Part shown: positions 1 to 20,982 of the stretch, piece by piece
Position numbering within the stretch: the first letter of the stretch is position 1
How the letters are laid out: each line of letters begins with the position of its first letter
Assembly (NCBI GenBank): GCA_026770585.1
Contig: MU646367.1
Span: 57,697 to 78,678, forward strand
Direction of reading: 5' to 3'
Length of the DNA stretch: 20,982 nucleotides
From: Baffinella frigidus
Lineage: Eukaryota; Cryptophyceae; Cryptomonadales; Baffinellaceae
Notes under the pieces: generated by a model
What the model was told of the DNA's origin: nothing
The model's database searches: none
What the model saw: only the letters and a program-made list of their open reading frames with translations
Made by a program: the position numbers and the translations under genes

Positions 1-345
1 AACCCTGAACCCTGAACCCTAAACCCTAAACTCTAAACCCTACACCCTTCACCCTAAACCCTAAATCCTAATCCCTAAACCCTGGACCCTAAACCCCAAC
101 CCTAAATCCTAAATCCTTAACCCTAAACCCTAAACTCTCAATCCTAAATCTAGTCCCTAAACCCTAAATCCTAAATCCTTAACCCTAAACCCTAAACTCT
201 CAATCCTAAATCTAGTCCCTGAACCCTAGACCCTAGACCCTAGACCCTAGACCCTAGAACCTAGATCCCAGACCTCAGACCCCCAGACCCTAAACCCTCA
301 ACCTCAAGCCAGTAACCATCAACCCTTGACCATTAACGCTTAACC
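1..345 (+). repeat. Degenerate telomere-like block, CCCTAAA on + strand
   Basis: Tandem heptamers of CCCTAAA with many variants (CCCTGAA, CCCTAGA, CCTAAAT, CCCTCAA). The array is too degenerate for a freshly telomerase-made end, so it is interstitial or subtelomeric. It holds an exact internal duplication of about 58 bp (101-158 and 163-220, offset 62). The orientation puts the C-rich strand in the sense direction of the WD40 fragment downstream. Confidence 0.9.
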
Positions 346-1359: not shown

Positions 1360-3782
1360 TCAGGAACGCCGGATGGCGAGGAAAAGGAGCACGAGCGAGA
1401 CGGGCAAGAGAGTCGGCGCTACAGCCACGTAGAGGCGGTGCAGGTTCCGCGCGCGCACCCACACCTTGGAGGGGCGCCTGGCAGCGAAGGCGAGCGGGTC
1501 GAAGTCTGAGGGGAGTGCCTCGAGGTCCTGGCGGTACCCGTAGGCATCGACCCTGCACGTTGGGGGGGGCGAGACGTGTCAAGCAGGTGGTGCGCGCGAT
1601 GCGAAACCTCTCTCTCGCGCGCGCACACACGCTATCGCTCTCTCGCTCTCTCGCTCGCTCTCTCTCTCTCTCTCTTGCTCGCTCTCGCTCTCTCTCGCGC
1701 TCTGTCCCGCAGCACTGCACGCCCCCCACTTGCTCCCTCAACATGTTCGGGGGTGCGGGGGTGTACAGGTCGTCGAAGCCCTTGATTTCCGCACACCGTG
1801 GGATGTGAGCCACGCGGCTGAGGCCCAGCGACTCCCAGAGAGCGAGAGACTCGGGGTTCGACGCGAACACCAGGTTGAAGTAGCTTGCCTTGTACCCCAG
1901 ATCCTTGGCAAACTTGAGGAAGCAGCTGCCCATTTGGGGGGGTAGGCTTGAGGGTTGAGGGTTGAGAGTTGCGGGTCTGGGGTTGAAGGTTGAGGGTTGA
2001 GGCGTTAGGGTTTAGACTTTACGGTTTGAGTTCATTAGGGTTTAGACTTTACGGTTTGAGTTCAGGCCCTAGGTTTTAGGGTTCAGGGTTTGGGGTTTAG
2101 GTTTGGGGTTTAGGGTTTAAGTTTCAGGGATTAGGGTTAGGATTCAGGGTTTAGCATTTGGGGTTTGGGATTTGGGATTGAGGGTTCAGGATTTAGCATT
2201 TGGGGTGGAGGGTTTAGACTTCAGGGTTGAGACTTTAGGGTTGAAGGTGTAGGGTATAGAGTTGAGGGTTGAGGGTGTACGGTTTGGGGTTGTGGGTTGC
2301 GGGTTAATTAAGGGTGAAGGGTTGGGGATTGAGGGTCTGGGCTTCAGGGTTCAGGGCTGAAGCTTTAGGGTTTGGGATTTAGGGTTTATGGTTTGGGGTT
2401 AGGCCCTGGGGTTTAGGGTGTTGGGTTTGGGGTTCAGGATTTAGGGTTTGGGATTGAGGGTTCGGGGTTTAGAGTTTGGGGTTCGAGGTTTAGGGTTCAG
2501 CGTTAAGCGTTGAGCGTGAGGGGTTGAGGGTTGAGGGTTGAGGGTTCAGCATTGAGCTGTTAGGGTTGATGGTTTAGGGTGTGAGGTTCCAGTTTCAGGT
2601 GTTAGGGTTCAACGTTTAGGGTGACCTAAGGGTTGAGGGTTTAGGGTTTAGGGTTTAGAGCCTACGGTATAAGGTGTAGGGTTTAGAGTTGCGGGTTGTG
2701 GGTTGAACACGCCTCACCCCCAAATCCCAGCCACGCCCCGTTGTTGGTCCAGGGTTTAGGGTCAAGGGTCTAGGGCTAAGGTTTAGGGTTTGGAGGTCAG
2801 GGTTCCAGGCTTCGGGTGCAGGGTATAAGGTTTGGGGCTTAGGGTTTAGGGTTTCGAGGTTCAAGTTTAGGTCTCGGGTTTAGGTTGTTGGGTTTAGGGG
2901 TTTAGTGGTTAGGGTTTAGGGTGAAGGGTTGAGGGTTGACGGTTGAGGGTTTGCGGTTCGGGGTGTAGGGTGTAGGGTGTAGGGTGTAGGGTTTCAAGGA
3001 TCCGGATGGCGAGTCAAGGGCTCAGAGTTGGTGGTTCCGGGTTCGGGTTCGGGAGTTCGGTGTTACGGTTGAGGGTAGAGTTTGGGTTCCGGGTTGAGTG
3101 TTGAGGTTGAGCGTTGAGCGTTTCTGGATGCTTCTAGAGGTCCCAGCACCTGCCCATGAGGCGTCCGACGCCCTGTCTTCGGAAGCGCGGGAACGTGATG
3201 AAGCCGCCGTTGCACACGTGCGCACACCTGCCAGCCCACACGCACCTCCGCTCAGCCACATGAGATCACCGTCGAGGAAAGCATCTGGCGTCGGAGAGAT
3301 GCGAAGGCTCGCCCAGAGCAAGCCCGTCTGTTTTTCTGCCAGCGCTTGACGGTTTCTGGCGCCGATACGTAGCGCTCAACGTTTTTTGTGAGGGTAGACG
3401 AGCAGGGCGTAGGGGTGGGGGTGGCCGATGCGCACCTCCCCGGGAAGTTAGGTTTGACGTAGAACATGCCGAGGAGGTCGCCTTTCTGCGAGGGGTTCCC
3501 GTCGCTGTCCACCCCCGCCTCCTCCGCGCGCACCACGAACGCCGCGTGCGAGAGAAAGTACCCGCAGAACGCGTCCATGGTGTCGTACTCTTGCAGGAAG
3601 GGCCACGACAGCCCCTCGTCGATGATCACGTTCATCATCACGCGGCACGGCTCCCACTCCTCCTTCCTGATCGCGCCTACCGCCACGCGTCGGCTGCTCA
3701 GGACGGTGACCAGGGGGAGGTAGGCGAGAGCCGAGATGCCGAGCGTCCCCGTCCCGGGCGATCCGCCGTAGGCTGAGGTCAT
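1360..3782 (-). CDS. GNAT-family N-acetyltransferase with C-terminal membrane anchor, 4 exons
   Basis: Exons (minus strand): 3782-3436, 3227-3150, 1925-1767, 1552-1360, giving 258 residues in one frame through junction phases 2, 2, 2. GNAT enzymes transfer an acetyl group from acetyl-CoA to an amine. The core includes EGLSWPF and YVKPNFPGRCAHVCNGGF, the acetyl-CoA loop R132-x-x-G135-x-G137 (RRQGVG), and the NPESLALWESLG helix (165-176). KGFDDL joins VDAYGYRQDL (196-205) across intron 3, as in fungal Mpr1-like acetyltransferases. About 20 hydrophobic residues (235-255) followed by RRS suggest a tail anchor. Intron 1 is 208 bp, intron 3 is 214 bp, and intron 2 is 1224 bp of mostly telomeric repeat. 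A TTTGCAG acceptor ends 2 bp before the ATG, so an upstream exon is possible. Substrate unknown. Confidence 0.85.
1605..1705. repeat. CT/GA microsatellite inside GNAT intron 3
   Basis: Low-complexity CTCTCG/CTCTCT tract on the + strand, hence GA-rich in the GNAT transcript. It lies wholly within the intron 1553-1766. Read through in frame it gives a long Arg-Glu run, which is an artefact. Confidence 0.85.
1926..3149 (+). repeat. Telomeric-repeat-filled intron 2 of the GNAT gene
   Basis: From about 1936 to 3115 this is degenerate TTTAGGG/TTGAGGG on the + strand, so CCCTAAA on the transcribed sense strand. The exons on both sides join in frame inside the conserved acetyl-CoA-binding region (LMG|S CFLKFA). 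The 5' splice site is GGCAG|GTGCTG and the 3' splice site is GGGCAG|CTGC. The word ATGGGCAG occurs at the end of the upstream exon (3150-3157) and again at the end of the intron (1926-1933). One short non-telomeric island lies near 2706-2752. Confidence 0.85.
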
Positions 3783-3900: not shown

Positions 3901-4107
3901 GGTTTTTGAGGTTTAGGGTTAACGGTTTAGGGTTAACGGTTTAGGGTTTAGGGTGGAATTTTTTTTGGGTTTAGGGTTTAAGATTTAGGGTCTAGGGTTT
4001 CGGGTATGTTGCAGGGTTTAGAGTTTAGGGTTTAGACTTGGAATTTAGGGTTTAGGGTTTGAAGTATGGGGTTTATGGTTTGGAATTTGGGATTACGGGT
4101 TTAGGGT

Positions 4108-4181
<74 letters not shown>

Positions 4182-5305
4182 CGTTTGAGCGTTCGGGGTG
4201 TGGGGTTTAGGGGGTAGGGGTCAGGCCCTACGATTTAGGGTTTGGGATCAAGGGTTTCGGGGTTTGGCCCTAGGGTTTAGGGTTTAGGGAATATGGTGGC
4301 GGGGTTCGGGTTTAGAATTTAGGGTCTCAAGTTTAGGGTGGAAGGTTTGACGTTTAGGGTTTGGCTTAGGATGGTGTGCGCGGTTTAGGGTCAGAGTTTA
4401 GGGTTTAGGGTTCAGGGTTCAGGGTTTAGGGTTTAGGGTTTAGGGTTGAAGATTTTAGGGATTAGGGTTGAGGGTTGAGGGTTGAGGGTTGGGGGTATGG
4501 TGGAGAGTTTTGGGTTTGGGCAATAGGCTTGAGGGTTTGGGGTCTAGGGTGTGGGGTATAGGTTTTAGTGTTCGAAATTTGGGATTACGGGTTCAGGGTT
4601 AAGGGTTCAGGTCAGAGGGTTCAGGGTTGAGGGTTCAGGGTTCAGGGTTCAGGGTTCAGGGTGTGGGGTGGAGGGTTGAGGGTTTGTGAGTTTGGGGTGT
4701 AAGGTTTGGGGTTTAGGGGTCAGGCCCTACTGTTTAGGGTGTGGGGTCTGGGTTTTAGGGTTTCGGCCCTAGGATTGAGGGTTGAGGGTATAGTGTGGCG
4801 GGGTTCGGGTTTAGGGTTTAGGGTTAAGGGCGTGGGGTTTGAGGTTTGGGGTTGAGGGGGTAAGGTTAATGATTCAGGGTTCAGGGTTCAGGGTTTCCGT
4901 TTCAAGGTTTAGGGTTTAGGGTTTAGTGTTTAGGTTTCAGCGTTTACGGTTTACGGTTTACGGTTTAACGTTTAGGGTTTAGACTTCAGGTTTGAGGGTG
5001 TAGTCTTTAGGTTTTAGGTTTCAACGTTTAGGGGATGCGGTTTAGGGTTGAGGTTTGAGGGTTGAGGGTTGTGGGTTGGGGGTCTAGGTTGTGTTGTCAA
5101 GGGTCTAGGGCTTGAGGGTGAAGAGTTGGGGGTTGGGGGTTGAGGGTTTTCGGGTTGGGGCGTAGGTTGAATGGTGTAGGCTGTAGGGGTGTGAGGATCA
5201 GGATGGAGAGTCAAGGGTGTAGAGTTGGAGGTGCAGGGTTTGGTTGCAGGGGTTCGGCTTTAGGGTTTAGGATTTAGAGTTTAGGTTGAGGGTTTAGCGT
5301 TGCTG
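3901..5305 (+). repeat. Degenerate telomere-like block, TTTAGGG on + strand
   Basis: Variants TTTAGGG, TTGAGGG, TTCAGGG and TTTGGGG in tandem. A uniform TTGAGGG stretch of about eleven units lies at 4104-4181. The block contains a diverged internal duplication with a period near 490-497 bp. For example, a 'GGGGTCAGGCCCTAC' segment appears near 4216 and 4714, and a GTGGCGGGGTTCGGG segment near 4296 and 4795. No gene is seen. Confidence 0.9.
5194..5231 (+). repeat. 38-bp segment shared with the end of GNAT intron 2
   Basis: An AGGATC...GGATGG...GAGTCAAGGG...AGAGTTGG segment that matches 2997-3034 at most positions by eye. Each copy sits near the right edge of a TTTAGGG-oriented block, about 80-110 bp before non-telomeric DNA, so the two blocks probably share an origin. 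Confidence 0.6.
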
Positions 5306-6658: not shown

Positions 6659-8946
6659 GACCCTAAACCCTAAACCCTAAACCCTAAGCCCTAAAACCTA
6701 AACCCTAAACTCTAAACCCTAAACTCTTAACCTTGAACCCTGCACCCTAAACCCTGATTAAAAACCCTAAACACTAAACACTGAGCCCTAAACCCTGATA
6801 ACCAAACCCTAAACCCTAAACCCCAAACCCTCAACCCTGAACCCTAAACCCTGAACCCTAAACCCTAAACCCAACACGCTAAATCCTAAACCCTCAACCC
6901 TAAGTCCTACACCATCACCCCTAAACCCTCACCTCTAAACCATAAACCCTCGCCCCTAAACCCTCAACCCTAAAACATGAACCTTGAATTTTGAACTCTA
7001 AACACTACACGCTAAATCCTCAACCCAAACCCCTAAGCCCTTAACCCTGAACCCTAAACCCTAAGCCCTAAACCCTTAACCCTAAACCCTAGACCCTAAG
7101 CCCAAAACCATCGGCCCTGAACTCTGAACCCTGAACCCAACAGGCTACACCCTAAACCCTGAACCCTAAGCCCTACACGATCATCCCCAAACCCCAAACC
7201 CTCACCACTAAACCCTAAACCCTGATCCCTAAACCCTGAACCCTAAACCATTAACACTAAATCATACGACCTTAGGCCTTAGCCCTTGACCCTTAACCCA
7301 AAACCCTAAACTCTCAACCCTCCGTCCGAAACCCTAAACCCCTAATCCTTAATTCTGAACCCTAAACTCTAAACCCTAAAATCCTCAACCCCTAACCCTC
7401 AACCCTAAACCCTGAATCCCACATGCTCAACCCTAAAACCTGAACCTTCAACCCTACAACCTCAACCCTGAACTCTAAACTCTAAATCTAAGCACTGGGC
7501 CCTTAGCCCTTGACCCTTGACCCTAAGCCTTAAGCCCTCAAACCTTAACCCTAAACCCTCAACCCTCAACCAATAACCCAAAACCCTGAACCCTCAACCC
7601 TTTATCCTGAACCCTTGACCATTAACACTCAACCCTCAGCACTAAACCTCAAACCTTAAACCCTGAATCACAAGCCCTTAGCCCTTAACCCTAAGTCATA
7701 AACCCTACGCCCTACACCCTAAACCCTAAACCCTAAACCCTAAACCCTAAACCCTAAACCCTAAACCCTAAACCCTAAACCCTAGCCCCTCAGCCCTAAA
7801 CCCTGAACCCTAAACAGCCTGAACCCTCAAACCTAAAGTCTAAACCCTAAACGTTAAACCGTAAACCCTCAATCTTAAACCCTAAACCCTAAACCCTAAA
7901 CCCTTCACCCTAAACCCTAAGCTCTAAACCCTAAACCCTAAATACTGAACACTGAATCCTTAACCCAACACGCTACACCGTAAGCCCTGAACCCTAAGCC
8001 TTACACCATAAATCCTATATCCTCAACCCTGAGCCCTAAACCTCAAACTCTAAACCCGAAACCCCAAACCCTTAACCCTCAAACCCTAACTCTAAACCCT
8101 AAACCCTAAGCACCACGTGCTGAACCCTAAACTCTGAACCCTAAACCTTCAACCCTAAACACTAAACCCCAAACCCTAAATCCTAAACCTAAATTATAAG
8201 CCCTTAGCCCTTAGCCCTTGACCCCAAACCCTAAACCCTAAACCCTCAACCCTAAACCCTAAACCCTAAACTCTGAACCCAAAACTTAAAACCCTACACC
8301 CTAAACCCTAAACCCTACATCATTAATCCAAAACCCGCAACCATAAACCCTAAACCCTAAACCCTAAACCCTTCACCCCAAACCCTCAACTCTAAACCCT
8401 AAACCCTAAACCCTAAACCCTGAACCCTAAACCCTAAACCCTAATCCCTAGACCCTAAAAATAAACCCCAAACCCTGAACCCTAAACCCTAAACCCCATT
8501 CCCTAAACCCTAAACCCTAATCCCTGAACTGCAAACCCTCAATCCTAACCCCCAAATTCCAACCCTTAAGCTCTTAACCCTGCTCAATACACCCTAAACC
8601 CTAAACCCTAAACCCTAAACCCTAAACCCTAAACCCTAAACCCTAAACCCTCAATCCTAAACCCTAGACCCTAAACCCTAAACCCTAATCCCTGAACTGC
8701 AAACCCTCAATCCTAACCCCCAAATTCCAACCCTTAAGCTCTTAACCCTGCTCAATACACCCTAAACCCTCAACCCTAAACCCTCAACCCTAAACCCTAA
8801 ACCCTGAATCCTAAACCCTAGACCCTAAACCCTAAACCCTAAACCCCACACGCTAATACCCCGACCCTAAACCCTAAACCCTAAACCCCAAACCTTAAAC
8901 CTTGAACTCTAAACCCTAAACCCTAATCCCCAAACCCTTTTGAATC

Positions 8947-8985
<39 letters not shown>

Positions 8986-9030
8986 ACCCGCAACCCGCAA
9001 CCCTCAACCTTGAACCCTCAATCCCAGCCC
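6659..9030 (+). repeat. Long degenerate telomere-like block, CCCTAAA on + strand
   Basis: About 2.4 kb of CCCTAAA variants. Near-perfect runs occur at 7717-7783 and 8592-8650. A run of CCCTCAA variants marks the right edge (8948-9010). Longer units recur with divergence: a CCCAACACGCTA...CCCTAAG(C/T)CCTACACCATCA-like unit near 6871, 7136 and 7971. No coding frame is seen. Confidence 0.92.
8518..8770 (+). repeat. Exact 84-bp duplication at 168-bp offset
   Basis: The segment beginning AATCCCTGAACTGCAAACCC at about 8519 recurs without visible change at about 8687. The offset, 168 bp, is 24 times 7, so the heptamer register is kept, as expected for unequal exchange or slippage within the array. 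Confidence 0.85.
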
Positions 9031-9480
9031 CTGCATAATAGTTTGTAACCAAGCTTCTGGTCCCGTGTCAGCTCGTCCTGACCCAGAGTGCACGTCCGCA
9101 GCTCACTTCGCAGCGCCAAGGGCCTCTACGGAAGTGCGCACAAGTCGTACAGGTGTGCGCCCCGCCCGAATCGCACCAACGTGCTGCGGGTTGCAGTCAA
9201 TAGTGGCGGGCAATGGTGCGGAAACCCCCGTAGCTTCTCCCAACAGATTGGTGCTTGCCAGGCCAGGGAGCAAGCGCTGTGTGTGCCTGCCCTGAGTGGT
9301 GGACTGGCGACTGGCTAAGCGAGGCACGAGGACGAACACGCCGGCCTGGCATCTGCAACTGCGGTTGCGTCGCGTGACCCATGGTGCATCTAGTGCAAGG
9401 GCGTGCGGATTCACGGTGCTATATTTAAGGGGGGTGTCTGTGCGCAGCACGGCGTCGGACGCCAACGGCTCGGGGACTTG
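9031..9480. other. Unassigned GC-rich DNA
   Basis: No recognisable gene. An open minus-strand frame of 120 codons (9465-9103) lacks any motif I know. The DNA starts abruptly at the edge of the telomeric block. Confidence 0.4.
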
Positions 9481-9494
9481 GTGATCGAGGGGAA

Positions 9495-9880
9495 GCCGGC
9501 GCGGGGCGTAAGCCGCGCTCGCAGAGTGTTTGTGGAGAGACGAGTGGGTCGTAGGTTACGAGCCTGGGTGATAAGGTTGTGAACCGCCAGTTGCTTCAAA
9601 GAGGATGCGATCAATGGCTCCAGGCTTTGACATGTTCCTCTACATGTCCCTTAAGACTGGCCACGTGTGGGAGTAAATCTAACGAAAGACAAGGGACTCC
9701 ATGACGCACGGTCTAGCGTTCACAAGGTGTGGTCTAAAGACCAAGACGTTTATTAAGGTAGATGCAAATTAGCCCAACACGTTTTCACACATCACGGCAC
9801 AGCTCGACCGGCGCGTTCCACTGAAAGGCCTAGCCGTGGTTCTAGAGGGGTCGTGTGATGCGATGGACTGCAGAGGTCCA
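9495..9880 (-). repeat. Diverged copy of DNA downstream of the stathmin-like gene
   Basis: Two stretches match 14240-14440. One is CGCTCGCAGAGTG (about 9512). The other is about 100 bp (9728-9830) containing GCAAATTA, GTTTTCACACA and GGCGCGTTCCACTGA. The copy has about 170 bp of extra DNA between them. On the minus strand the second part contains AATAAA (TTTATT at about 9749), where the other copy has TATAAA. This suggests that the repeat derives from the 3' end region of a gene. Confidence 0.6.
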
Positions 9881-10997
9881 TAAGAACGGGGTTCCTTGTT
9901 CATGATAAGCGTCATGTGCATCACTCGCAATCCCCGGGCCTGAGACCCCCCCAGAAAGGCGGAAATGGACCCATGGATCAGTCAACTACAGGAATCTAGG
10001 CTTGCAGGGCTACAGAAACACCCACCCTTGGTCGAGCCTCGGTCAGTGTCTGTTTTTTTTAATTAGCACCTGCGGCTTGACTGAAATAACGCGATATTTA
10101 GTGAAACCTCTGGTAGATGTATCAGAACACGCAGGCCCCAAATAAGAACACGCAGGCCCCAAATTCGGTACTGGTTCTTCAGTTTTTTGAACATGTAACC
10201 CAGTTCTTTCATCTGGGGGGGTCAAAACTGTTTGCACCCAAGCAGGGTGACAGGAGCTCGAGACACGGTTGCGTGTTGAGTAAAAGCTTTCATTGAAAAA
10301 GGGAAACGGCCAAACCGCCGATTCCTACTTCGGGCTTGCCCGACAAAGTACGAGACTGTTAAAAAGCGTTAATTGAACCCACAGAATAAGGTACACACCT
10401 GTGTGTGATGTGTGGACCTTAATAAACTGAGGACCGCACACCGAAGGGTTTATGTGCGGGCCTTAAATTTAAGGACAACCCTGTTTTTCCAGGGCCTCAG
10501 CAAAATTTAAGGACCTCACAGCCACCGCCAAAAACAAAATGCCCAACATCGCTTACTTCAACGGAGATTGGAGCTAGATATTTTCGGTTTAAAGAATGTG
10601 CTAACATTTTTGGGACAAACTGTGTTCCCGAGTATTCTTGAGTGGTGCATCAACAAAAATTGCACCTAGCCCAGATCCACAGTTAAGGTCCACACCAACC
10701 GAGTTGAGCGCTTGCCTTCTTTGCTTTTGCTGGCCTTGAAGACCAACAGAGGCCCGCACACCGACGGGTTTCAAGCCCCGCACACCAATGGGTTTCACAA
10801 GCCGTATCTTCATTTTGAGTAACCTCTGTAAACTCACTAAAGTCACTCCGACTCCTGAATGTGTGTGTGTGTTCAGAATCCGTCGTGGAACACTGTCACA
10901 TTCCCGATGAGGACACCCTTAGCCGGTTCTGCCGCGATCCTCTGTACACGGGGGCTTGATGTGATTCGAAAGGAAGCATGGTCTTTTTTTGTAGACA
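9881..10997. other. AT-richer repeat-bearing DNA without genes
   Basis: It contains a member of a foldback-element family (about 10045-10215, similar to 12297-12400) with a 20-bp internal tandem near 10122-10162. A CCGCACACCGA.GGGTTT word occurs three times (about 10434, 10753 and 10779), and there is a 14-bp palindrome CCTTAAATTTAAGG near 10464. I see no coding region. Confidence 0.45.
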
Positions 10998-11058
10998 GAA
11001 CAAGTTCCGGTGTCCGCCTATGTTGGGAGCTCGAAGAACCTAAAGGACCTAAAGGATG
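10998..11058 (+). repeat. Left arm of a 61-bp inverted repeat
   Basis: Pairs with 11423-11483 with one mismatch by eye. The arm runs from GAACAAGTTCCGGTG to AAAGGACCTAAAGGATG. The enclosed 364 bp hold no recognised gene. Confidence 0.9.
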
Positions 11059-11316
11059 CTCCTACGTGGGTGTGGGTAGTGTGGGTAGGATGGGAACTCC
11101 GACTCCGACTCTGGGAGGGGATACTGAACGCCCAGCGTGCCACAGAGTCCCTTGTCTTTCGTTGGGTTGGCATGCGTTTAGAAGGCCGGGGGTTCCAGTT
11201 GTACACCAGTCAACTCTTTTGAGTGTCTTTGTTTTGGAAGCCTGGGTGAATCTACTTTGGAGGCCTCATATCCGTGAATCCTTGGGTAACCTCTGAGCCT
11301 ACATACCCACCCCCAA

Positions 11317-11392
11317 AACTAGAACTGACGCCCGCTCGCGTGGGCACTGATGGGCCTAACTAGAACTGACGCCCGCTCGCTTGGGCCGATGC
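11317..11392 (+). repeat. Two-copy 41-bp tandem repeat
   Basis: AACTAGAACTGACGCCCGCT recurs at 11317 and 11358. It lies inside the loop of the 61-bp inverted repeat. Confidence 0.85.
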
Positions 11393-11422
11393 GGAACAAG
11401 AGCAGAGACTGCCACGGCACGA

Positions 11423-11483
11423 CATCCTTTAGGTCCTTTAGGTTCTTCGAGCTCCCAACAAAGGCGGACACCGGAACTTGTTC
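11423..11483 (-). repeat. Right arm of the 61-bp inverted repeat
   Basis: Reverse complement of 10998-11058 with a single visible difference (TATGTT versus TTTGTT). Such near-identity suggests recent formation or selection for the foldback. Confidence 0.9.
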
Positions 11484-11629
11484 GACAGGGTGAGTGACTG
11501 TGTAAAGTCACAAAGACAATTTTTACGTAAAATGAGGGATTGAATCAAAATTCAAAATGGGGCTTGTTATGAACGCTACAAGCCCCACGTGCCGCAAAGT
11601 CCCTGATCTTCAGTTTACTGAAACTGGTC

Positions 11630-11718
11630 ACATGCTTTTAAAGGGCAGAAGTGTCCAGCTTTTAGAGCTTTTAAAGGACAGGAGTGTCGATGCTTTTAAC
11701 GAGCAGGATTGTCCAGAA
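11630..11718 (+). repeat. Three-copy GCTTTTAAAGG-type tandem repeat
   Basis: Imperfect units each starting GCTTTTAA and ending in AGTGTC or ATTGTC, abutting the left edge of the duplicated gene-head segment. Confidence 0.65.
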
Positions 11719-11738
11719 ATGCTCCATCTGGCACCAAC

Positions 11739-11931
11739 CTTGCGGTTGACGTCGGCGTTCTCCAGCTGTGCGGTTGACGTCGGCGTTCTCCAGCTGAGCC
11801 TGGATGTCGGCGAACGACTTCGGGCTGAAGGGCTCCTGCGCCCGGGTCTCTAGCCGGATCTGCGCGGGGCTCTTGAAGCCGGCCGGAACCGGAGACTTGA
11901 TGTCAACCTCAATCACTTCGCCTTTGACCAT
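11739..11931 (-). pseudogene. Broken copy of stathmin-like exon 1
   Basis: Starts at the same ATG context (11931) and encodes the same first 54 residues as the intact gene. A 28-bp internal duplication just before the splice donor shifts the phase, so spliced continuation would be out of frame. None of exons 2 to 5 is visible between 9500 and 11738. It is a 5' fragment left by duplication, still next to a copied promoter and perhaps transcribed. Confidence 0.85.
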
Positions 11932-12013
11932 CGTGGTTATCGATGTACCTCTCCTGAACAGCTCTGAAACACCGCGAACAAGCTTGCCACCACCCTGACT
12001 TGAGAACTTTGAA

Positions 12014-12023
12014 TTTTGGCGGG
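12014..12023 (+). promoter_or_regulatory. E2F-like site in the copied promoter
   Basis: TTTTGGCGGG, the duplicate of the site at 16242-16251, unchanged. Confidence 0.4.
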
Positions 12024-12154
12024 CTGGGTTGACCGAAACAAAAGTCAACAATGACTTTCGAAGAGAACCGAATTCCGGTCGGGTCGTCCCACGAAGGCTG
12101 GAAAGCGGTCCTGCCGAATTGATCTCCTTCCATCCCTCCCAATTCCGGGAAATA

Positions 12155-12283
12155 ATGGCCGATCAGGTGGACGCGGCGGCAAAGGCGCGGGTGGAGAAGC
12201 GCTGCCAGGAAATCGTGGAGACCGAGTCGGGCCTGTGTGCCAGCATCCTGGCGCTCACCGAAAAGCTAGACCACGTCAAGCAG
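12155..12283 (+). pseudogene. Copy of RhoGEF exon 1, otherwise truncated
   Basis: Encodes the same 43 residues as 16383-16511 except that the last codon is CAG instead of GAG. A GT follows (GTCAGA), so a donor could exist, but no further DH exon follows; the next DNA is a foldback-family repeat. Confidence 0.85.
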
Positions 12284-12582
12284 GTCAGAATCACGTGAGA
12301 TTTAGTCAAACCTCTGGCAGAATGATGAAAACACCTAGATCCCAAATCTGGTTCAGGTGTACCTGTGTACGGGTTCTCAAGATTTTTGAACGTGTCATCC
12401 AGATATTCCTGTAGAGCCCTGGGCCTCAGTCAACTACAGGGTGCATGGGGGTATCTGGGCTGTCCCTCAAGTGACCAGTAGGCTCACAGGCCCTACCGTA
12501 GGGCCAAAGGACCTGTCAAGGGCTTCCACGGGCGATTATTCGCGCGTTGGTCACTTAAGGGATAAAAACATGTTTGCTCAAA
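12284..12582. other. Foldback-family repeat and flanking DNA
   Basis: 12297-12400 resembles 10089-10208 (TTTAGT.AAACCTCTGG, then a TTTTTTGAAC.TGT segment). 12485-12560 resembles 12855-12925 in direct orientation (GCCCTACCGTA, GGACCTG, CACTTAAGGGATAA). No gene. Confidence 0.5.
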
Positions 12583-12720
12583 ATCGTTCGGTGTCTGTTT
12601 GCTTGAATTGGTGCGTGTTGACTAAAGATTTCTTCAACCATCTGGAACTAAATTAAGAAAACGGGGTGTGCCAAATCCGGTCTGTGTTCTCAAGTTCTGG
12701 GTTCTTATCCCTTGGGTGGC
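12583..12720 (+). repeat. Left arm of a foldback element
   Basis: Reverse-complement match to 12914-13059 over about 140 bp with small gaps. The match includes ATCGTTCGGTGTC, TTAAGAAAACGGGG and CAAATCCGGTCTGTGTTCT. Confidence 0.85.
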
Positions 12721-12812
12721 AAGGGGGTCTGATTATTGATTACTGAATTTATTAAAGAGGGTTCGCCGTTATTGCCTAACCCGTGCCATTACCCAAATGG
12801 ACCCCCACAGGT

Positions 12813-12884
12813 CCTAGGCAGGTCCTAGCTAGTGTGCCGAGCAGGCCCATGCGCCCTACCGTAAGGCCCTAGGACCTGCCTAGG
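12813..12884. repeat. 15-bp hairpin inside the foldback element
   Basis: CCTAGGCAGGTCCTA (12813-12827) is the exact reverse complement of 12870-12884. Confidence 0.85.
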
Positions 12885-12892
12885 ATCATTTA

Positions 12893-12910
12893 GCCGTCAA
12901 ATTTGACGGC
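12893..12910. repeat. Perfect 18-bp palindrome
   Basis: GCCGTCAAATTTGACGGC, directly before the right foldback arm. Confidence 0.85.
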
Positions 12911-12913
12911 CTC

Positions 12914-13059
12914 GCCACTTAAGGGATAAGAAACCAGAACTTAAGAACACAGACCGGATTTGGCCCCCCCGTTTTCTTAATTTAGTACCAGAGGGTTGAC
13001 TGAATCTTGCGTTGAGTCAACCCTCTGGTACCAATTTAAAAAAACTGACACCGAACGAT
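12914..13059 (-). repeat. Right arm of the foldback element, with nested hairpin
   Basis: Pairs with 12583-12720. It contains its own hairpin: GTACCAGAGGGTTGACT at 12985-13001 and its exact reverse complement at 13015-13031, with a 13-nt loop. Confidence 0.85.
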
Positions 13060-13093
13060 GTCGAAGCATCCGTGTTCTTGTATAGCCTAGATA

Positions 13094-13219
13094 CCCCTGT
13101 ACAGGGGTACCTCGCTCATAAGAAACGCCCACCCCCCTAGCACCACCATAGGGCCCTAGGCATGGGATACTGTAGGGTCCTAGAGGGGCGCTGTTTCTTA
13201 AGCAAGGTACCCCTGAAGG
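13094..13219. repeat. Second foldback element
   Basis: 13094-13140 and 13179-13219 are imperfect inverted repeats (AGGGGTACCT, TAAGAAAC and the CTAG ends pair). The short loop contains further palindromic CCTAGGG words. Confidence 0.7.
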
Positions 13220-13389
13220 GCGTATGATCCTACTGGGCACTTGAGAGGTAGCTCAGATACCACTATAGACCCGATGTACAATTAGCTTTTGGCTAGCGGG
13301 GCTACTCGATGGAGTTGTGTGGTGGAGTGAACTCGTACAAAGCAGTTGTGCTCAAGTTGAGCGTGTATCAAGTCTGTACTTCACACGTC

Positions 13390-13662
13390 CTACAGTTGGT
13401 AATCAATAGATTGGTATGCGGGAAGGGGAGCGCTCGGAGAGCCCAAAAGCTCGCCGTCAGCGTCGGGTACCATGCCGGACCTGATAACGATGGATCCCAG
13501 ATCCACGGCGAGAAAAGCCCCGCCGAGAGGGGGTGGGGGGTTTCTGGGACCGTGGAAGTGCCTTTTTGCTTTCCCAGGCCCTTTCGCGCTGCTGCTCTTG
13601 CACGCAGCCAGGACCCGTCGCAGATCATCCACGCGGGGTTCGCTCTGCGTCTGGAAGTGCAT
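13390..13662 (-). other. Possible coding fragment with a sugar-kinase-like phosphate motif
   Basis: An open minus-strand frame reads a helical stretch (VDDLRRVLAAC) and then FLAVDLGSIVIRSG followed by DADGELLGS. This recalls the N-terminal phosphate loop and first hairpin of ASKHA kinases such as FGGY sugar kinases, but the usual G-T-G/S core is altered and there is no confirmed flanking exon. It may be a decayed exon or chance. The remaining DNA from 13220 to 13780 shows nothing else that I can assign. Confidence 0.2.
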
Positions 13663-13782
13663 CCAGAGAACGGCGAGCGCTCTGAGCAGCGCTCGATCCC
13701 CTTAGACCCTGGACCTCGAAGCCAGACAGTGCCTCGAGGATCAGTCAACTACAGCCCAGGGCGTCTGTCAACTTAGACAGAT

Positions 13783-14096
13783 GCTCGGGCCTAATGTGGA
13801 GAGAGAGTAAAGCGACTTCTACGCGCGGCGTGCAGAGTCTTATGTACGCTTATTCTTCTTCCCATCGAGAGTGTGCCCCTGGCTTGAGTTAAATGTACCT
13901 TCAGTGCCAGGCCGACCAAACCTCCATAGCAACATGTACGCTTGGGCCTGATGAGGAGTGCGAGCAAAGCGACTGCTACACGCGGGCCGCAGAGACTTCC
14001 CTTCCCATCGAGTACATTTAGGTGTGCCCCTTTCCGGAGCTAAATGCACATTCAGTGCCAGACCGACTCACCAATCCTCCTGTGGCAACATGTAAC
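13783..14096 (+). repeat. Two-copy tandem repeat of about 157 bp
   Basis: Unit 1 (13783-13939) and unit 2 (13940-14096) share GGGCCT.ATG, AAAGCGACT.CTAC, TTCCCATCGAG, TGTGCCCCT and TTCAGTGCCAG..CGAC, and both end in GCAACATGTA. They are diverged by substitutions and small gaps. Confidence 0.8.
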
Positions 14097-14573
14097 TTAG
14101 TTCGCGCGAACGGCCTTGCTAAGACAACGCACGACGAGCAACCTCATTTTCTCAGAAGAGGCAGCACGTTCGTGCCCCCCCACCCCCGATCAAAAATCAT
14201 TCGTAGCACCGTACCACCTCGGGGGAAGCGGTGTCTGGCTACATGTTGGCAGGCGGGGCTTGACAGGCGTTGCGCGCTCGCAGAGTGCATGTGCCGAGAC
14301 GCGGTGGCACAGTGGCTATCAAAGACCCAAAAGTTTATAAACGTAGTTGCAAATTACAGTAGCCCAACCCGTTTTCACACACATCGCTGCACAGCTCGCC
14401 GGCCGGCGCGTTCCACTGAGAGGACAACCCAGGATCGTGGATGCGATCCGGACCATCAGTTAGTAAGTTAGTTTGCGCGAGCGGCCTTACGAAGACCGCG
14501 CACGACGAGCAACCTCATGCGCGAGGCTGCCGGAAAGCGCTGCCTGCCTACATGTGGCCGGCGGGGCTCGCGG
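14095..14573 (+). repeat. Direct repeat overlapping the 3' end of the stathmin-like gene
   Basis: 14097-14260 resembles 14463-14573. Shared words are TAGTT.GCGCGA.CGGCCTT, CACGACGAGCAACCTCAT and CTACATGT.GGC.GGCGGGGCT. The second copy includes the gene's final codons and stop; the first contains the matching decayed tail. So the 3' end of the gene and its downstream DNA have been tandemly copied. Confidence 0.7.
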
Positions 14574-16159
14574 CATCCGGACCGGGAGGGCCCGGGGAGC
14601 GGGAGACGGCGCCCGGGGAGCGGACGCCCTTGGCGGGCGACATGCGGCGCGAGGTGGCGACCTTGTTCTCGAGGCTCAGGGCGTGGTTAGTCGCCGCGCT
14701 GAGCATCTTGGACTCGATGCCACAGCGCAGGTCCTCGCGCGCCTGGTTCTCCTTCTCCGCCTGCTTCACCGCAACATCCTTGGCGTGCACCACCTGCGCC
14801 GCCGCCTTGTCCTTCTGCTCCGTCAGAAGCTGGTTGCGCCGCTCCTCCGCCTGCGGCCAACGAAGCCTCCGTCAGCGACCCCAGCCACCGCGCGCACCAC
14901 CGCTGCTCGCTCACTGCATCTGTGCCACGTCTCAAAGGGCTGCACCCCGACATTCAGCCACGGCTGAAAGGGCTGCAAACCGAATGCATGAGCCACGGCT
15001 GAAAGGGCTGCAGTCCGACATTCAGCCGTGGACATTCAGTCACGGCTGAAAAGGGCTGCACATGGGAATGAGAAACGGCAGGGTGAGTGGGGGGCACACC
15101 GCCGACGACTTCTGCTTGTACTTCTCGTCCATCTCGACAAGAGACTGCTGCTTCTTCTGCGCCATCTCCTTCGCCTGCGCGGAAGCACCCACGCGTTTCA
15201 GCCGTCGCTCGCAATACGTGGTTCAGCACCAGTCTGCGACAAAACATGGGCACATGAAGTCTTGCTCAGTGTGTCAGGCGGGAAAAGGTGGTTACCTTGG
15301 TGACCTCCGCGCCCGCTTTGCTGCTCGCCTCCTCGAGCTGCTTCAGGCGGAACTGCTCGGCAGCCGAGAGCTTGCCCTGCTTGCTCTCGGCAGCCTCGTC
15401 GTATTGCGCCTTTTGCGAGGAGTCCTGCTCCTCCCGCTTCCGCTGCACCTCCCCCACCCGGACGTTCATGGCCTTCGTCTTCTCCAGGCTCTCAGCCGCC
15501 TGCGCAGCGCGCTTCTCGTCCGCGGCGCTCTGCCAATCGAATCACGTCAAGTCAGATCCACGCCTCCTCCGTGTGCCCCCTCGCAACAGTGCACGGGGCC
15601 TGCAGGGAAAGGTCTCACCATCTTGTTCTGCACATCCTCCTTGTACTTGTTGGTGAGCTCGCTCAGGGCCTCCTGCGTCTTAACGCCCGCGTCCTTCACC
15701 TTGGTGTTGTACGCGATGGTCTTCTCGGCGCGAGCCGAGAGCAGCGCCTGCGCCGTCCCAAAAGACTCAGCCGGCAGCAAAAATCCTGCACGTGCACTCC
15801 AACAAGGGGGAATATGCCTTCTGCCCACCAATCGCTGCTCCAGAGCACCCTCGCTGCCGTCCTCTCCTCTTTGCTCTATTTCAGCCACACATGAAAGCAC
15901 TGGGGCAGCCTGCTCACTGCACGGTCACAAGGAGCACGAACCCGCAAGCGTTCTGCACCACCTGCAGCATGGATATGCTCCATCGGGCACCAACCTTGCG
16001 GTTGACGTCGGCGTTCTCCAGCTGAGCCTGGATGTCGGCGAACGACTTCGGGCTGAAGGGCTCCTGCGCCCGGGTCTCTAGCCGGATCTGCGCGGGGCTC
16101 TTGAAGCCGGCCGGAACCGGAGACTTGATGTCAACCTCAATCACTTCGCCTTTGACCAT
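14548..16159 (-). CDS. Stathmin-like coiled-coil protein, 5 exons
   Basis: Exons (minus strand): 16159-15995, 15747-15619, 15529-15296, 15174-15100, 14850-14548, giving 301 residues, with every intron in phase 0. Stathmins bind tubulin dimers and regulate microtubule assembly. Here a capping-peptide-like start (VIEVDIKSPVPAG, then PFSPKSFADIQ) leads into a long helix QLENADVNRKALLSARAEK, which matches the stathmin pattern of S-P-x-x-x-S plus charged helix. Charged heptad-like coiled coil continues to about residue 265. The end is a Ser-Pro-rich tail (RSPGAVSRSPGPPGP), a possible phosphorylation region. Animal stathmins are about 150 residues, so this form is extended. An in-frame upstream ATG exists at 16279, but it would overlap the divergent gene's own upstream ATG; I prefer 16159. 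A related 5' fragment lies at 11739-11931. Confidence 0.82.
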
Positions 16160-16382
16160 CGTGGTTATCGATGCACCTCTCCTGAACAGCTCTGAAACAC
16201 CGCGAACAAGCTTGCCACCACCCTGACTTGAGAACTTTGAATTTTGGCGGGCTGGGTTGACCGAAACAAAAGTCAACAATGACTTTCGAAGAGAACCGAA
16301 TTCCGGTCGGGTCGTCCCACGAAGGCTGGAAAGCGGTCCTGCCGAATTGATCCCCTTCCATCCCTCCCAATTCCGGGAAATA
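16160..16382. promoter_or_regulatory. Divergent promoter shared by stathmin-like and RhoGEF genes
   Basis: The 223 bp between the two start codons must hold both promoters and both 5' leaders. No TATA box is visible. An E2F-like word is present at 16242-16251. A short inverted repeat GTTGAC/GTCAAC (about 16255-16277) and repeated AATTCCGG words (about 16299 and 16369) are other candidate sites. The whole segment is copied at 11932-12154 with about two changes. Confidence 0.7.
16242..16251 (+). promoter_or_regulatory. E2F-like binding word
   Basis: TTTTGGCGGG fits the E2F/DP consensus (TTTSGCGS with flanking T). In plants, algae and animals such sites drive genes around DNA replication and division. 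The match is short, so function is inference. Confidence 0.4.
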
Positions 16383-18404: not shown

Positions 18405-18574
18405 GTCCGCCGCCTTTGCCTTTGGCTCTCACACACAGCCACTTTCGAGGCCTCGAAACTAAGCGGGCTCAGCCAGTCTGACCATAAGGGGGGGTTCGGT
18501 CTGCAGAGAGGTGCAGCACCGACACAAGGATGCCAGTGCTGACAGCGGCCAATGCGCATTTCTTGAACACACTA
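18405..18574 (+). other. Boundary between RhoGEF and telomeric block
   Basis: Directly after the last clear PH codon comes GTCCGC. Reading through gives about 45 residues that do not look like PH sequence (a stop is reached at 18540-18542). It is either the start of an intron that runs into the telomeric block or the point where the gene was broken. Confidence 0.5.
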
Positions 18575-20982
18575 AACCCTGAAACCCTAGAACCCAAACC
18601 CTAAACCCTAAACCCTTAACCCCAAACCCTAAACCCTAAACCCTAAACCCTAAACCCTAAACCCTAAACCCTAAACCCTAAACCCTGAAACCCTAAAACC
18701 CTAAAACCCTAAAACCTAAACCTTGAACCCTAAACCCTTGACCATTGACCCTCAACTCTAAACCCTGAACCCTAAACTCTAAACCCCTAAAAACCTAAAA
18801 CCTCAACCCTCAACCCTCAACCCTTGACCATTGACCCTCAACCCTAAACCCTGAACCCTAAACTCTAAACCCTAAACCCTGAAACCTCATCCCTAAATCC
18901 CAATGACCCTCAACCCTAGACCCTAGACCCAAAACCCTAAACCCTAAAACCTCAACCCTAAATCCCAATCACCCTCAACCGTAGACCCAAGACCCAAAAC
19001 CCTAAACACTGAACACCAAACCCTAAAACCCTAAGAACCTAAAACCTAAACCCTCAACCCTCAACCCTTGACCATTGACCCTCAACCCTAAACCCTGAAC
19101 CCTAAACCCTCAACCCTAAACCCTGAAACCTCAACCCTAAATCCCAATGACCCTCAACCCTAGACCCTAGACCCAAAACCCTAAACCCTAAAACCTCAAC
19201 CCTAAATCCAAATCACCCTCAACCGTAGACCCTAGACCCAAAAACGTAAACCCTAAGAACCTAAACCCTGAATCCTTAGTCATCAACCCGAAACCCTGAA
19301 CCGTAAACCCTGAAACCCTGCCCCCCCAATCCGTAAACCCTGCAACCGAAAACCTAAAATCTAAACCCTGAACCCAATACCCTAAACCCTGAACCCCAAA
19401 CCCTAAACCCTAAGAAAAGCGTTTGCCTCTAAACCCCAAGTCTTGAACCGTAAATTCTGAATCGTAAACCATAAAACCCTCAACCCTGAACCCCACACCC
19501 TCAAACCTAAAATCTAAACCCTAAACCTCAAATCCCAAACCCTAAGCCCTAATCCCCTGAACCCTGAACCCTGAACCCTGAACCCTACACCCTGAACCCT
19601 AAACCTTGAACCCTAAACCCTGAAACCCCATAACCCTAAATCTTGAAACTTAAAACCTAAACCCTAAACCCTCAACCCTTGACCGTTGACCCTGAACACT
19701 GAACCCTCAACCCTAAACCCTGAACCCTCAAACCTCAACCCGCAATCCCAAACACTTTCAATCCTGGACCCTAGACCCAAGACCCTGAACCCTAACCCCT
19801 AAACCCTAAACCCTAAACCCTAAACCCTAAACCCTAAACCCTAAACCCTAAACCCTAAACCCTGAACCCTAAACCCTAAGTCCTAACCCCTAGCCCCTAA
19901 CCCGTAACCCTCAAACACTCATCCCTAATCTCTTACCCCTAAACCCTCAACCCTGAACCCTCAACCCTGAACTCTATGCCCTCCAACCTAAACTCTAAAC
20001 CCTGAACCCAATACCCTACACACCGAACCCTAAACACGAAACCCTAAGAAAAGCGTTTTACTCTAAACCCTAAGTCATCAACCCTAAACCCTAAGCCGTA
20101 AACCATAAAACCCCGAACCCCAATCCGTAAACCCTAAAACCTGAAATCCCAAACCCTAAACCCTAAACCCTAAACCCCAAACCCTAAACCCTAATCCCCA
20201 AAACCCTAAAACCTCAACCCTAATTCCTAAAAACTCCCACCCTAGACCCTAGACCAAGAAACCTAAACCCCAAACCCTAAACCCTAAACCCTAAACCCTA
20301 AACCCTAAACCCTAAACCCTTACCCGTAACCCCCACACCCTCATCTCTAATCTCTTGCCCCCAAACCCTAAGCCCCGAACCCCAAAACCTGAACCCTCAG
20401 CCCTCCACCCTCAACCCCCAGCCCTAATCCCTGAATCCAATACCGTAAAACGTAAACCCAAAACCCTAAACCCTGGGGAAAGTTTTTGACTTCAAACCCT
20501 AAGTCATCAACCCGAAACCCTGAACCGTAAACCCTGAAACCCTGCCCCCCCGTATCCGTAAACCCTACAACCTAAAACCTAAAATCTTAACCCTAAACCC
20601 TAAACCCTAAACCCTAAACCCTAAACCCTAAACCCTAAACCCCAAACCCCAAACCCTAATCCCCAAAGCCCTGAACCCTAAACCCCAAGACCTCAACCCT
20701 AATACCTGAAAACCAAAACCCTAAACCCTACACCCAAAACCCTAAACTCTCAACTCTCAACTGTCAACCCTGCCCCACCAATCTGTAAACACTACCACCT
20801 GAAACCTAAAGTCTTAACCCTAAACCCTGCACCCCAAACCCTTAACCCCAAACCCCAAACCCTAAACCCTAAACCCTAAACCCTAAACCCTAGAACCTAA
20901 AACCTGAACCCTGAACACTAATCCCTGAACCCTGAACCCTACACCCTACACTCTGAACCCTGAACCCTGAACCCTAAACCCT
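18575..20982 (+). repeat. Telomere-like block with higher-order units, CCCTAAA on + strand
   Basis: It runs to the window end. Near-perfect CCCTAAA runs occur near 18627-18685, 19797-19862, 20274-20318 and 20591-20641. Higher-order copies are visible: a TTGACCATTGACCCTCAACC unit at 18824 and 19068 (offset 244); an AAGAAAAGCGTTT marker at about 19413 and 20047, with a diverged form near 20477; and a GTCATCAACCCGAAACCCTG unit at 19279 and 20503 (offset 1224). No coding frame. Confidence 0.92.

What the first reader, a model, noticed from the sequence alone, without database searches (positions are those of the whole stretch)
1926..3157. An intron made of telomeric repeat, flanked by an 8-bp target-site-like duplication
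Seen: ATGGGCAG ends exon 2 (3150-3157) and also ends the intron (1926-1933). Between them lie about 1.2 kb, mostly TTTAGGG/TTGAGGG variants. Removing GT...AG restores an uninterrupted GNAT fold exactly in the acetyl-CoA-binding region. Known: introner elements and intron gain at double-strand breaks often leave short direct repeats and reuse an AG from the duplicated site as a splice site. Inferred: telomeric DNA was inserted at a break or staggered cut and became a spliced intron, with the duplicated GGCAG serving as the 3' splice site. A telomere-derived spliceosomal intron with such a duplication is something I do not recognise as a described class.
Basis: partly seen in the sequence, partly recalled or inferred. 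Interest (0 to 1): 0.88.

Follow-up and report, generated by a model that had tools for sequence, protein, structure and literature searches.

The report
Telomere-repeat introns in a cryptophyte alga
An intron in an algal acetyltransferase gene is built mostly of telomere-like repeat and is spliced out, and similar introns occur in other genes of this Arctic cryptophyte; we did not find such a class of introns described.

Summary
ATGGGCAG stands at both ends of a 1,224-nt GT-AG intron, 74% covered by CCCTAAA-like words (17% when shuffled), in an MPR1-like GNAT gene. Splicing is real: a 258-residue database protein from a 919-nt contig equals the spliced product exactly, and no second copy was found. 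The host is the cryptophyte Baffinella frigidus or very near it. The genome holds 53,120 exact CCCTAAA trimer hits (reversed control 27). Of 28 loci sampled only by a telomere-like 28-mer, nine gave introns containing such arrays, three of them backed by homology. One is a proteasome RPT3 gene whose spliced product aligns without gaps to a solved structure. Sense strands are mostly C-rich. So this intron is one of a class. Telomere-like introns show a modest excess of matches between exon end and intron end, not seen in 10 other introns. Ten of 71 arrays have duplicated flanks of 18-46 bp (0.1 expected), but at least three are tandem exon-plus-array copies, and short flank repeats are not in excess once six loci are removed. 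Whether relatives lack the intron could not be tested.

The parts
3436..3782 (-). GNAT exon 1 (start codon at 3782)
   Evidence: spliced product of the four exons equals P0001
3228..3435 (-). GNAT intron 1 (GT-AG, 208 nt, telomere-word coverage 0.10)
3150..3227 (-). GNAT exon 2, ending ATGGGCAG
3150..3157 (-). first copy of the 8-bp direct repeat ATGGGCAG (end of exon 2)
1926..3149 (-). GNAT intron 2: GTGCTGGGACC...AAATGGGCAG, 1,224 nt, coverage by CCCTAAA-like words 0.74
   Evidence: spliced in P0001
3122..3149 (-). about 28-nt non-telomeric leader of the insert, carrying the 5' splice site
   Evidence: read (26 nt by the word count)
1934..3121 (-). degenerate telomere-like array, C-rich on the gene strand, with non-telomeric stretches at 3041-2996 (46 nt) and 2749-2707 (43 nt)
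1926..1933 (-). second copy of ATGGGCAG, its last bases forming the 3' splice site
1767..1925 (-). GNAT exon 3
1553..1766 (-). GNAT intron 3 (GT-AG, 214 nt, not telomere-like)
1363..1552 (-). GNAT exon 4, hydrophobic C-terminal tail (stop codon follows)
3909..5302 (-). telomere-like array upstream of the GNAT start codon, C-rich on the gene strand; whether it is intronic is not known
18569..20982 (+). telomere-like array inferred to lie in a RhoGEF-like gene intron: the gene resumes beyond the window at window coordinate 22467 (relies on scaffold order across an N gap)
1..298 (+). telomere-like array upstream of a WD40-like exon (about 649-992; Pfam match below cut-off)
6659..9021 (+). telomere-like array, genic context not established

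Best explanation
In Baffinella frigidus, degenerate telomere-like DNA (CCCTAAA and variants) lies at very many internal sites, and in genes it serves as the body of spliceosomal introns. GNAT intron 2 is one. Shown: it is spliced, it is mostly array, and other genes have several introns of this kind. Inferred: a telomere-like fragment with a short leader entered a break in the GNAT exon, with a short duplication of the break ends, and became an intron because the C-rich strand is poor in AG and GT, dense in CTNA branch-point-like and pyrimidine motifs, and ends against a ready AG. Local duplication of exon edge plus array goes on afterwards at some sites.
For: P0001, 258 of 258 residues, 919-nt contig; one copy found. 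27,288 + 25,832 exact trimer hits vs 14 + 13 controls. Nine of the 28 loci fetched out of 69 listed 28-mer places gave curated telomere-like introns; with GNAT 23 introns, 20 of them with coverage 0.5 or more. RPT3 with eight introns removed aligns gap-free over 262 aa; dynein AAA_8 spans two junctions above cut-off, La and filamin span one each below cut-off. Donor junction: 88 of 277 GTACACCCTAAACCC preceded by G vs 22 of 394 ATACACCCTAAACCC, P=1.7e-19. C-rich sense in 22 of 24 automatic intron calls and 21 of 26 arrays with a coding-strand call (P=0.0025). Insert sense strand AG 25, GT 17, CTNA 87, G4 motifs 0; antisense 128, 155, 6, 9. Duplicated flanks at 10 of 71 arrays vs 0.10 expected.
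Against: No empty site was seen: relatives' DNA was out of reach and only one copy of the gene was found, so gain versus filling of an older intron is not decided; the three longest non-telomeric stretches of GNAT intron 2 add up to 115 nt, enough for a whole control intron (shortest 89 nt). Short flank repeats (8 bp or more) are not in excess outside six loci, 0 vs 2.07, and narrow flanks are weak in any case (1 vs 1.23 and 3 vs 1.21). Some telomere-like introns have no repeat, e.g. RPT3_B match 1, L054 match 0. In L079, L080 and L081 both copies of the exon edge are followed by an array, which points to tandem duplication. The GNAT array is degenerate (TRF 64% matches); had it decayed in place from perfect repeat, the second ATGGG should have decayed too. 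Single-base counts at array starts do not favour GT (394 AT vs 277 GT). 'Telomeric' means telomere-like: the perfect 98-bp arrays are internal, the nearest 17 kb from a contig start. Only GNAT i2 has direct transcript support; six of the nine loci rest on open frames without a homology match.
Confidence: 0.57

Rival explanations
1. Old introns filled in place: the introns were there already, and telomere-like repeats later inserted into or grew within them; the 8-bp match is chance on top of the shared CAG.
For: GNAT intron 2 keeps non-telomeric stretches of 46, 43 and 26 nt, in sum as long as a small control intron (89-273 nt for seven RhoGEF introns). Some introns are only partly array: RPT3_D 0.15, RPT3_E 0.23, RPT3_F 0.15, and the RhoGEF array begins about 170 nt after its donor. 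Many arrays had no coding signal beside them. Contiguous matches without GNAT: P=0.095.
Against: Many arrays begin or end at the splice site itself, and G|GTACACCC is enriched over G|ATACACCC. The 10 non-telomeric introns lack the in-register excess.
Confidence: 0.33
2. Tandem duplication of exon edges carrying array: slippage or unequal exchange copies exon edge plus array, and the duplicated AG/GT gives new splice sites (tandem genomic duplication model).
For: Flanks of 18-46 bp duplicated at 10 of 71 arrays; in L079, L080 and L081 each copy is again followed by an array.
Against: Needs an array at the site first; L042 has no array outside its two 18-bp copies in the stretch shown; GNAT has only 8 bp duplicated.
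Confidence: 0.2
3. A mobile element (introner) that carries telomere-like repeat, with its own ends and a target duplication.
For: Many introner families have TSDs, some without TIRs; [quoted passage not shown] The insert has a short leader.
Against: Ends differ between introns and I saw no terminal inverted repeat in GNAT; repeats at the junctions vary from none to 8 bp. The genome search for the leader did not complete, so this is not excluded.
Confidence: 0.1
4. Artefact of assembly or of the P0001 contig.
For: The window is bounded by N runs at arrays, so arrays disturb assembly.
Against: P0001 equals the spliced product; RPT3 splices without gaps; the pattern recurs in independent loci.
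Confidence: 0.02

Closest known systems
Introners (introner elements; PMC9860276, PMC7789003)
   Same: Introns of related sequence at many sites of one genome; a splice site co-opted from a direct repeat; flanking repeats of 3-9 bp, in some families without TIRs (passages).
   Different: Body is a degenerate telomere-like tandem array of variable length, no fixed ends or family consensus seen. The main text of PMC9860276 has no hit for cryptophy, Baffinella, Guillardia or telomer.
[quoted passage not shown]
   Same: DNA joined into a staggered break leaves short direct repeats; 43% of gained Daphnia introns had them (passages).
   Different: Filler here is telomere-like and recurrent. The same review notes 25% of gained vs 26% of conserved Drosophila introns with such repeats, so background matters; our excess is modest.
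Interstitial telomeric sequences (review PMC6410037)
   Same: Telomeric repeat inside chromosomes; insertion during break repair is recalled knowledge (I saw only the reference to Nergadze et al. 2007 in that review's list).
   Different: Usual descriptions as short intergenic or fusion relics are recalled. The review mentions an 800-bp tract put into an APRT intron by experiment (passage); here arrays form introns of several genes.
Tandem genomic duplication introns
   Same: Duplicated exon edges supply donor and acceptor (passages); duplicated edges seen around some arrays.
   Different: The intron body here is array rather than duplicated exon.

Membership tests
Spliceosomal intron | Removed from mRNA at GT-AG (or GC-AG) borders | tested here: met
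   GNAT intron 2 by P0001; RPT3 introns by gap-free homology; the rest by homology or open frames only
Introner | Copies of one element as introns at unrelated sites | tested here: inconclusive
   Shared repeat motif in introns of nine of 28 sampled loci plus GNAT, but a tandem motif, no fixed consensus
Introner | Defined ends, with TSD and/or TIR in many families | tested here: inconclusive
   No TIR seen in GNAT; junction repeats vary from none to 8 bp; leader search not answered
DSB-repair intron | Short direct repeats flank the intron more often than control introns | tested here: inconclusive
   In-register excess in 21 GT-AG telomere-like introns, none in 10 others; array-flank excess gone without six loci
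DSB-repair intron | Relatives or alleles have the uninterrupted site | not testable with these tools
   One copy of GNAT found; no relative in viral contigs; the RPT3 copy search did not complete
Interstitial telomeric sequence | Repeat equals the species' telomere repeat | tested here: inconclusive
   CCCTAAA is the Arabidopsis-type repeat (recalled); the 54 perfect 98-bp hits are internal, none within 17 kb of a contig start; most contig ends not checked
Tandem genomic duplication intron | Exon segment duplicated across the intron | tested here: inconclusive
   10 of 71 arrays have duplicated flanks, at least three with array after both copies; GNAT has 8 bp only

The most novel reading that the evidence does not exclude
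Baffinella has undergone mass intron gain from telomere-like DNA: repeat fragments inserted at breaks in exons across the genome became introns at once, because the C-rich strand is a ready-made intron body (branch-point-like CTNA and pyrimidines about every seven bases, few AG or GT), so that mainly C-sense insertions survive in genes. Telomere-related repair would then be a source of new introns.
Probability: 0.33. Interest if true: 0.92.

Novelty: new variant of a known kind. Interest (0 to 1): 0.8.

Why it matters
Where new introns come from is a long-standing question; proposed sources include transposon-like introners, exon duplication and break repair. A genome in which telomere-like repeat forms introns in conserved genes such as RPT3 and dynein would add a filler that most eukaryotes carry, offer a reason why one strand is preferred, and make intron gain testable by comparing strains of one Arctic alga.

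Tried and rejected
Relatives' DNA: the search for related loci with P0001 in viral contigs gave no relative; 17 viral-contig loci with telomere-like words were fetched, and the blastn rows shown matched the window through the repeat only; megablast of 9050-18560 in phages gave nothing. A protein search for the L050 gene, meant to confirm the GC-AG case L050_d, found one partial relative that does not reach that junction. So L050_d and L066_1 (GC donors, chosen partly because of their repeats) stay unproven; tests are given with and without them.

Single-base counts at array starts do not favour the donor (ATACACCC 394 vs GTACACCC 277); the two-base context does. The TTACACCC count, the acceptor counts (last tries), the leader search and the RPT3 copy search did not complete.

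The 18 '10-kb random' stretches proved mostly N (23,758 readable bases), so no array frequency is claimed from them; their telomere-word coverage was 0.144 vs 0.075 shuffled. The coding score was trained on 743 codons, some in a wrong frame (one GNAT exon and some RhoGEF segments, visible), so it is rough. The automatic caller misplaced some splice sites; the curated list replaced them by hand and left out, as uncertain, the calls in L051, L063, L071 and L076, one each in L050 and L077, and two antisense calls in L052.

Papers: no hit for six phrases on telomeric introns, none for telomere-like with within introns, nuclear genome and alga. Introner plus cryptophyte gave five papers: PMC7789003 seen by passages, the other four as listing. 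PMC9756366 (Baffinella CCMP2293 genome) has no word beginning intron or telomer in its main text (passages). PMC9860276, PMC11782384, PMC6410037 and PMC3443670 were seen by passages. The library holds open-licence papers only.

Full report
WHAT IS THERE. CTGCCCAT stands at 1926-1933 and 3150-3157, i.e. ATGGGCAG on the gene strand at the end of exon 2 and at the end of the intron. The intron is 1,224 nt. Telomere-like words (within one mismatch of a rotation of CCCTAAA) cover 909 of its 1,224 bases, against 17% in shuffled letters; the longest stretches outside them are 46, 43 and 26 nt. Commonest units are CCCTAAA (17) and CCCTCAA (15). The array is C-rich on the gene strand. The gene encodes a GNAT acetyltransferase (PF00583), closest among solved structures to MPR1.

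THE SPLICING IS REAL. Protein P0001 (258 aa, source jgi, longest contig 919 nt) is identical to the product of exons 3782-3436, 3227-3150, 1925-1767 and 1552-1363; all three introns are GT-AG. The gene spans about 2.4 kb, so a 919-nt contig cannot hold the introns, and a search of the genome found these exons and no other copy. I take the contig to be a transcript; its record was not seen. P0006 (176 aa; three contigs, longest 973 nt) reads on into intron 1.

THE HOST. The RhoGEF-like gene of the window matched P0133, a Baffinella frigidus protein of NCBI that includes residues read from an intron, the same as in the window. Baffinella sp. CCMP2293 is an Arctic cryptophyte with a published 534.5-Mb draft, 41.1% repeats (PMC9756366, passages). 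G000 has 382.5 Mb in 1,364 contigs, the window at C65:57697-78678.

NOT A SINGLE CASE. Exact CCCTAAACCCTAAACCCTAAA has 27,288 + 25,832 (overlapping) hits, the reversed control 14 + 13; the listed plus-strand hits form about 20 clusters along the first 2 Mb of C1. A 28-mer of mixed variants gave 69 places, of which I fetched 28 as L050-L077. Nine of these 28 gave curated telomere-like introns: L050, L052, L054, L055, L062, L066, L069, L074, L077. L071 splits a La domain but is not in the list. L052 is a 26S proteasome RPT3 gene: with eight introns removed, its product aligns over 262 residues without a gap to 8amz chain K, followed by many chains named subunit 6B. Telomere-word coverage of its introns is 0.83, 0.68, 0.50, 0.23, 0.15, 0.15, 0.03 and 0.02. 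L055 is a dynein heavy chain (AAA_8, above cut-off). L077 (filamin, E 3.5e-05) and L071 (La, E 5.3e-06) are under Pfam's cut-offs. Four of ten products had no Pfam match at E 1, one (L050A) only weak ones, and L054 and L062 were not scanned: their introns rest on open frames. At seven sites chosen by the donor-like word GGTACACCC (of 88), four (L078, L080, L081, L082) show a short open, coding-like stretch between two arrays, L079 a repeated exon edge, and L083 and L084 are unclear.

SPLICE SITES AND STRAND. Telomere-like introns often begin G|GTACACCC, G|GTACCC or G|GTGCCCC and end CAG in or just after the array. Genome-wide, 88 of 277 GTACACCCTAAACCC are preceded by G against 22 of 394 ATACACCCTAAACCC, Fisher P=1.7e-19. 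Single-base counts alone do not favour GT, and the acceptor counts did not complete. The C-rich strand is sense in 22 of 24 automatic intron calls, both exceptions lying antisense to RPT3, and in 21 of the 26 arrays where a coding strand could be called (5 of 5 with both flanks, 16 of 21 with one). Arrays in one locus are not independent. In the GNAT insert the sense strand has AG 25, GT 17, CTNA 87 and no G4 motif, the antisense AG 128, GT 155, CTNA 6 and nine: a reason why C-sense inserts would splice cleanly. That CTNA is branch-point-like is recalled.

DIRECT REPEATS. (a) GNAT: 8 bp, chance about 0.1% given CAG at both ends. (b) In-register contiguous matches at the two splice sites, 23 curated telomere-like introns: mean 3.39 vs 2.76 by re-pairing (P printed as 0.0000 from 20,000 re-pairings); five or more in 7 vs 3.34 (P=0.008), seven or more in 2 vs 0.56 (P=0.09). 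GT-AG only: 3.14 vs 2.79 (n=21, P=0.0056), five or more 5 vs 3.20 (P=0.14). Without GNAT: 2.90 vs 2.73 (n=20, P=0.095). Identity at 14 non-consensus positions: 4.90 vs 3.87 (n=21, P=0.0006); 10 other introns 3.90 vs 3.96. The list was curated by me, so this leans. Single cases: RPT3_H GGTAC, DHC_2 GGTTC, and with GC donors L050_d GGCATGC and L066_1 AGGCG. (c) Array flanks, no splice sites used: 8 bp or more in 10 of 76 vs 1.44 by re-pairing; 9 of 74 vs 4.2% in local controls (P=0.0012); locus-wise controls 8 of 69 vs 2.94 (P=0.009; by loci 6 vs 2.83, P=0.054), wider flanks 10 vs 4.05 (P=0.005), narrower flanks 3 vs 1.21 and 1 vs 1.23 (not significant), and 0 of 50 vs 2.07 after leaving out L038, L042, L051, L059, L062 and L077. 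(d) Long duplications: 10 of 71 arrays, in 10 of 33 loci (L038, L042, L053, L059, L062, L077, L079, L080, L081, C1), have flanks aligning over 18-46 bp at score 12 or more, 0.10 expected from different loci; three of the ten are from the sites picked by the donor word, and the L053 one is A-rich simple sequence. L042 (18 bp) has no array outside either copy in the stretch shown, as a target duplication would; L059 (26 bp) has an opposite-strand telomere-like stretch a little upstream; L079, L080 and L081 have an array after each copy, as tandem duplication would.

READING. That telomere-like arrays form introns in this genome I hold at about 0.9. That GNAT intron 2 was gained by insertion of such DNA, about 0.5. 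That its 8 bp are a target duplication, about 0.4. The best rival is that old introns were filled: the non-telomeric stretches of GNAT intron 2 could be remains of one, and partly filled introns such as RPT3_D and the RhoGEF one (the gene resumes beyond the array) show that filling happens. The degeneracy of the array speaks against decay in place of a perfect repeat with an intact duplication, though arrays may have been inserted already degenerate. The decisive test, empty sites in relatives, could not be run.

KNOWN OR NEW. By mechanism it resembles introners (PMC9860276) and break-repair introns (PMC3443670), and by content interstitial telomeric sequences (PMC6410037), all seen as passages. 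A study of 213 introns reports direct repeats near the borders of every one (PMC11782384, passages), which warns against reading much into one repeat. I found no description of telomere-repeat introns as a class in the searches (open-licence library only; listings, with passages of the papers named). I rate it a new variant of a known kind.

Noticed in passing
window 11769-12286 and 15997-16514: A 518-bp direct duplication, 99.4% identical, copying the head-to-head first exons of a coiled-coil-like gene (-) and the RhoGEF-like gene (+).
   Followed up: partly
window 17004-17105: A RhoGEF intron that looks GA-AG by homology (TTGCAG|GAACGT...TGTGCAG|AAGAAA, TGCAG at both ends); a GT-AG reading that drops six conserved residues is not excluded. 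The next intron looks GC-AG.
   Followed up: partly
window about 16547-18020, P0133: The NCBI Baffinella protein T484DRAFT_3296301 includes intron residues and shifted frames, so that gene model is probably wrong here.
   Followed up: no
L079, L080, L081, L077, L062, L059, L042, L038; L051 below the cut: Exon-edge or flank sequence of 18-46 bp duplicated on both sides of telomere-like arrays, in some with array after each copy.
   Followed up: partly
window ends in scaffold C65: The window's first and last arrays adjoin runs of N, so the assembly breaks at them.
   Followed up: no
window 18597-19251: Within the array a 244-bp higher-order unit repeats 2.7 times at 87%.
   Followed up: no
window 3909-5302: A second array just upstream of the GNAT start codon, also C-rich on the gene strand; whether it is promoter or 5' UTR intron is open.
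   Followed up: no
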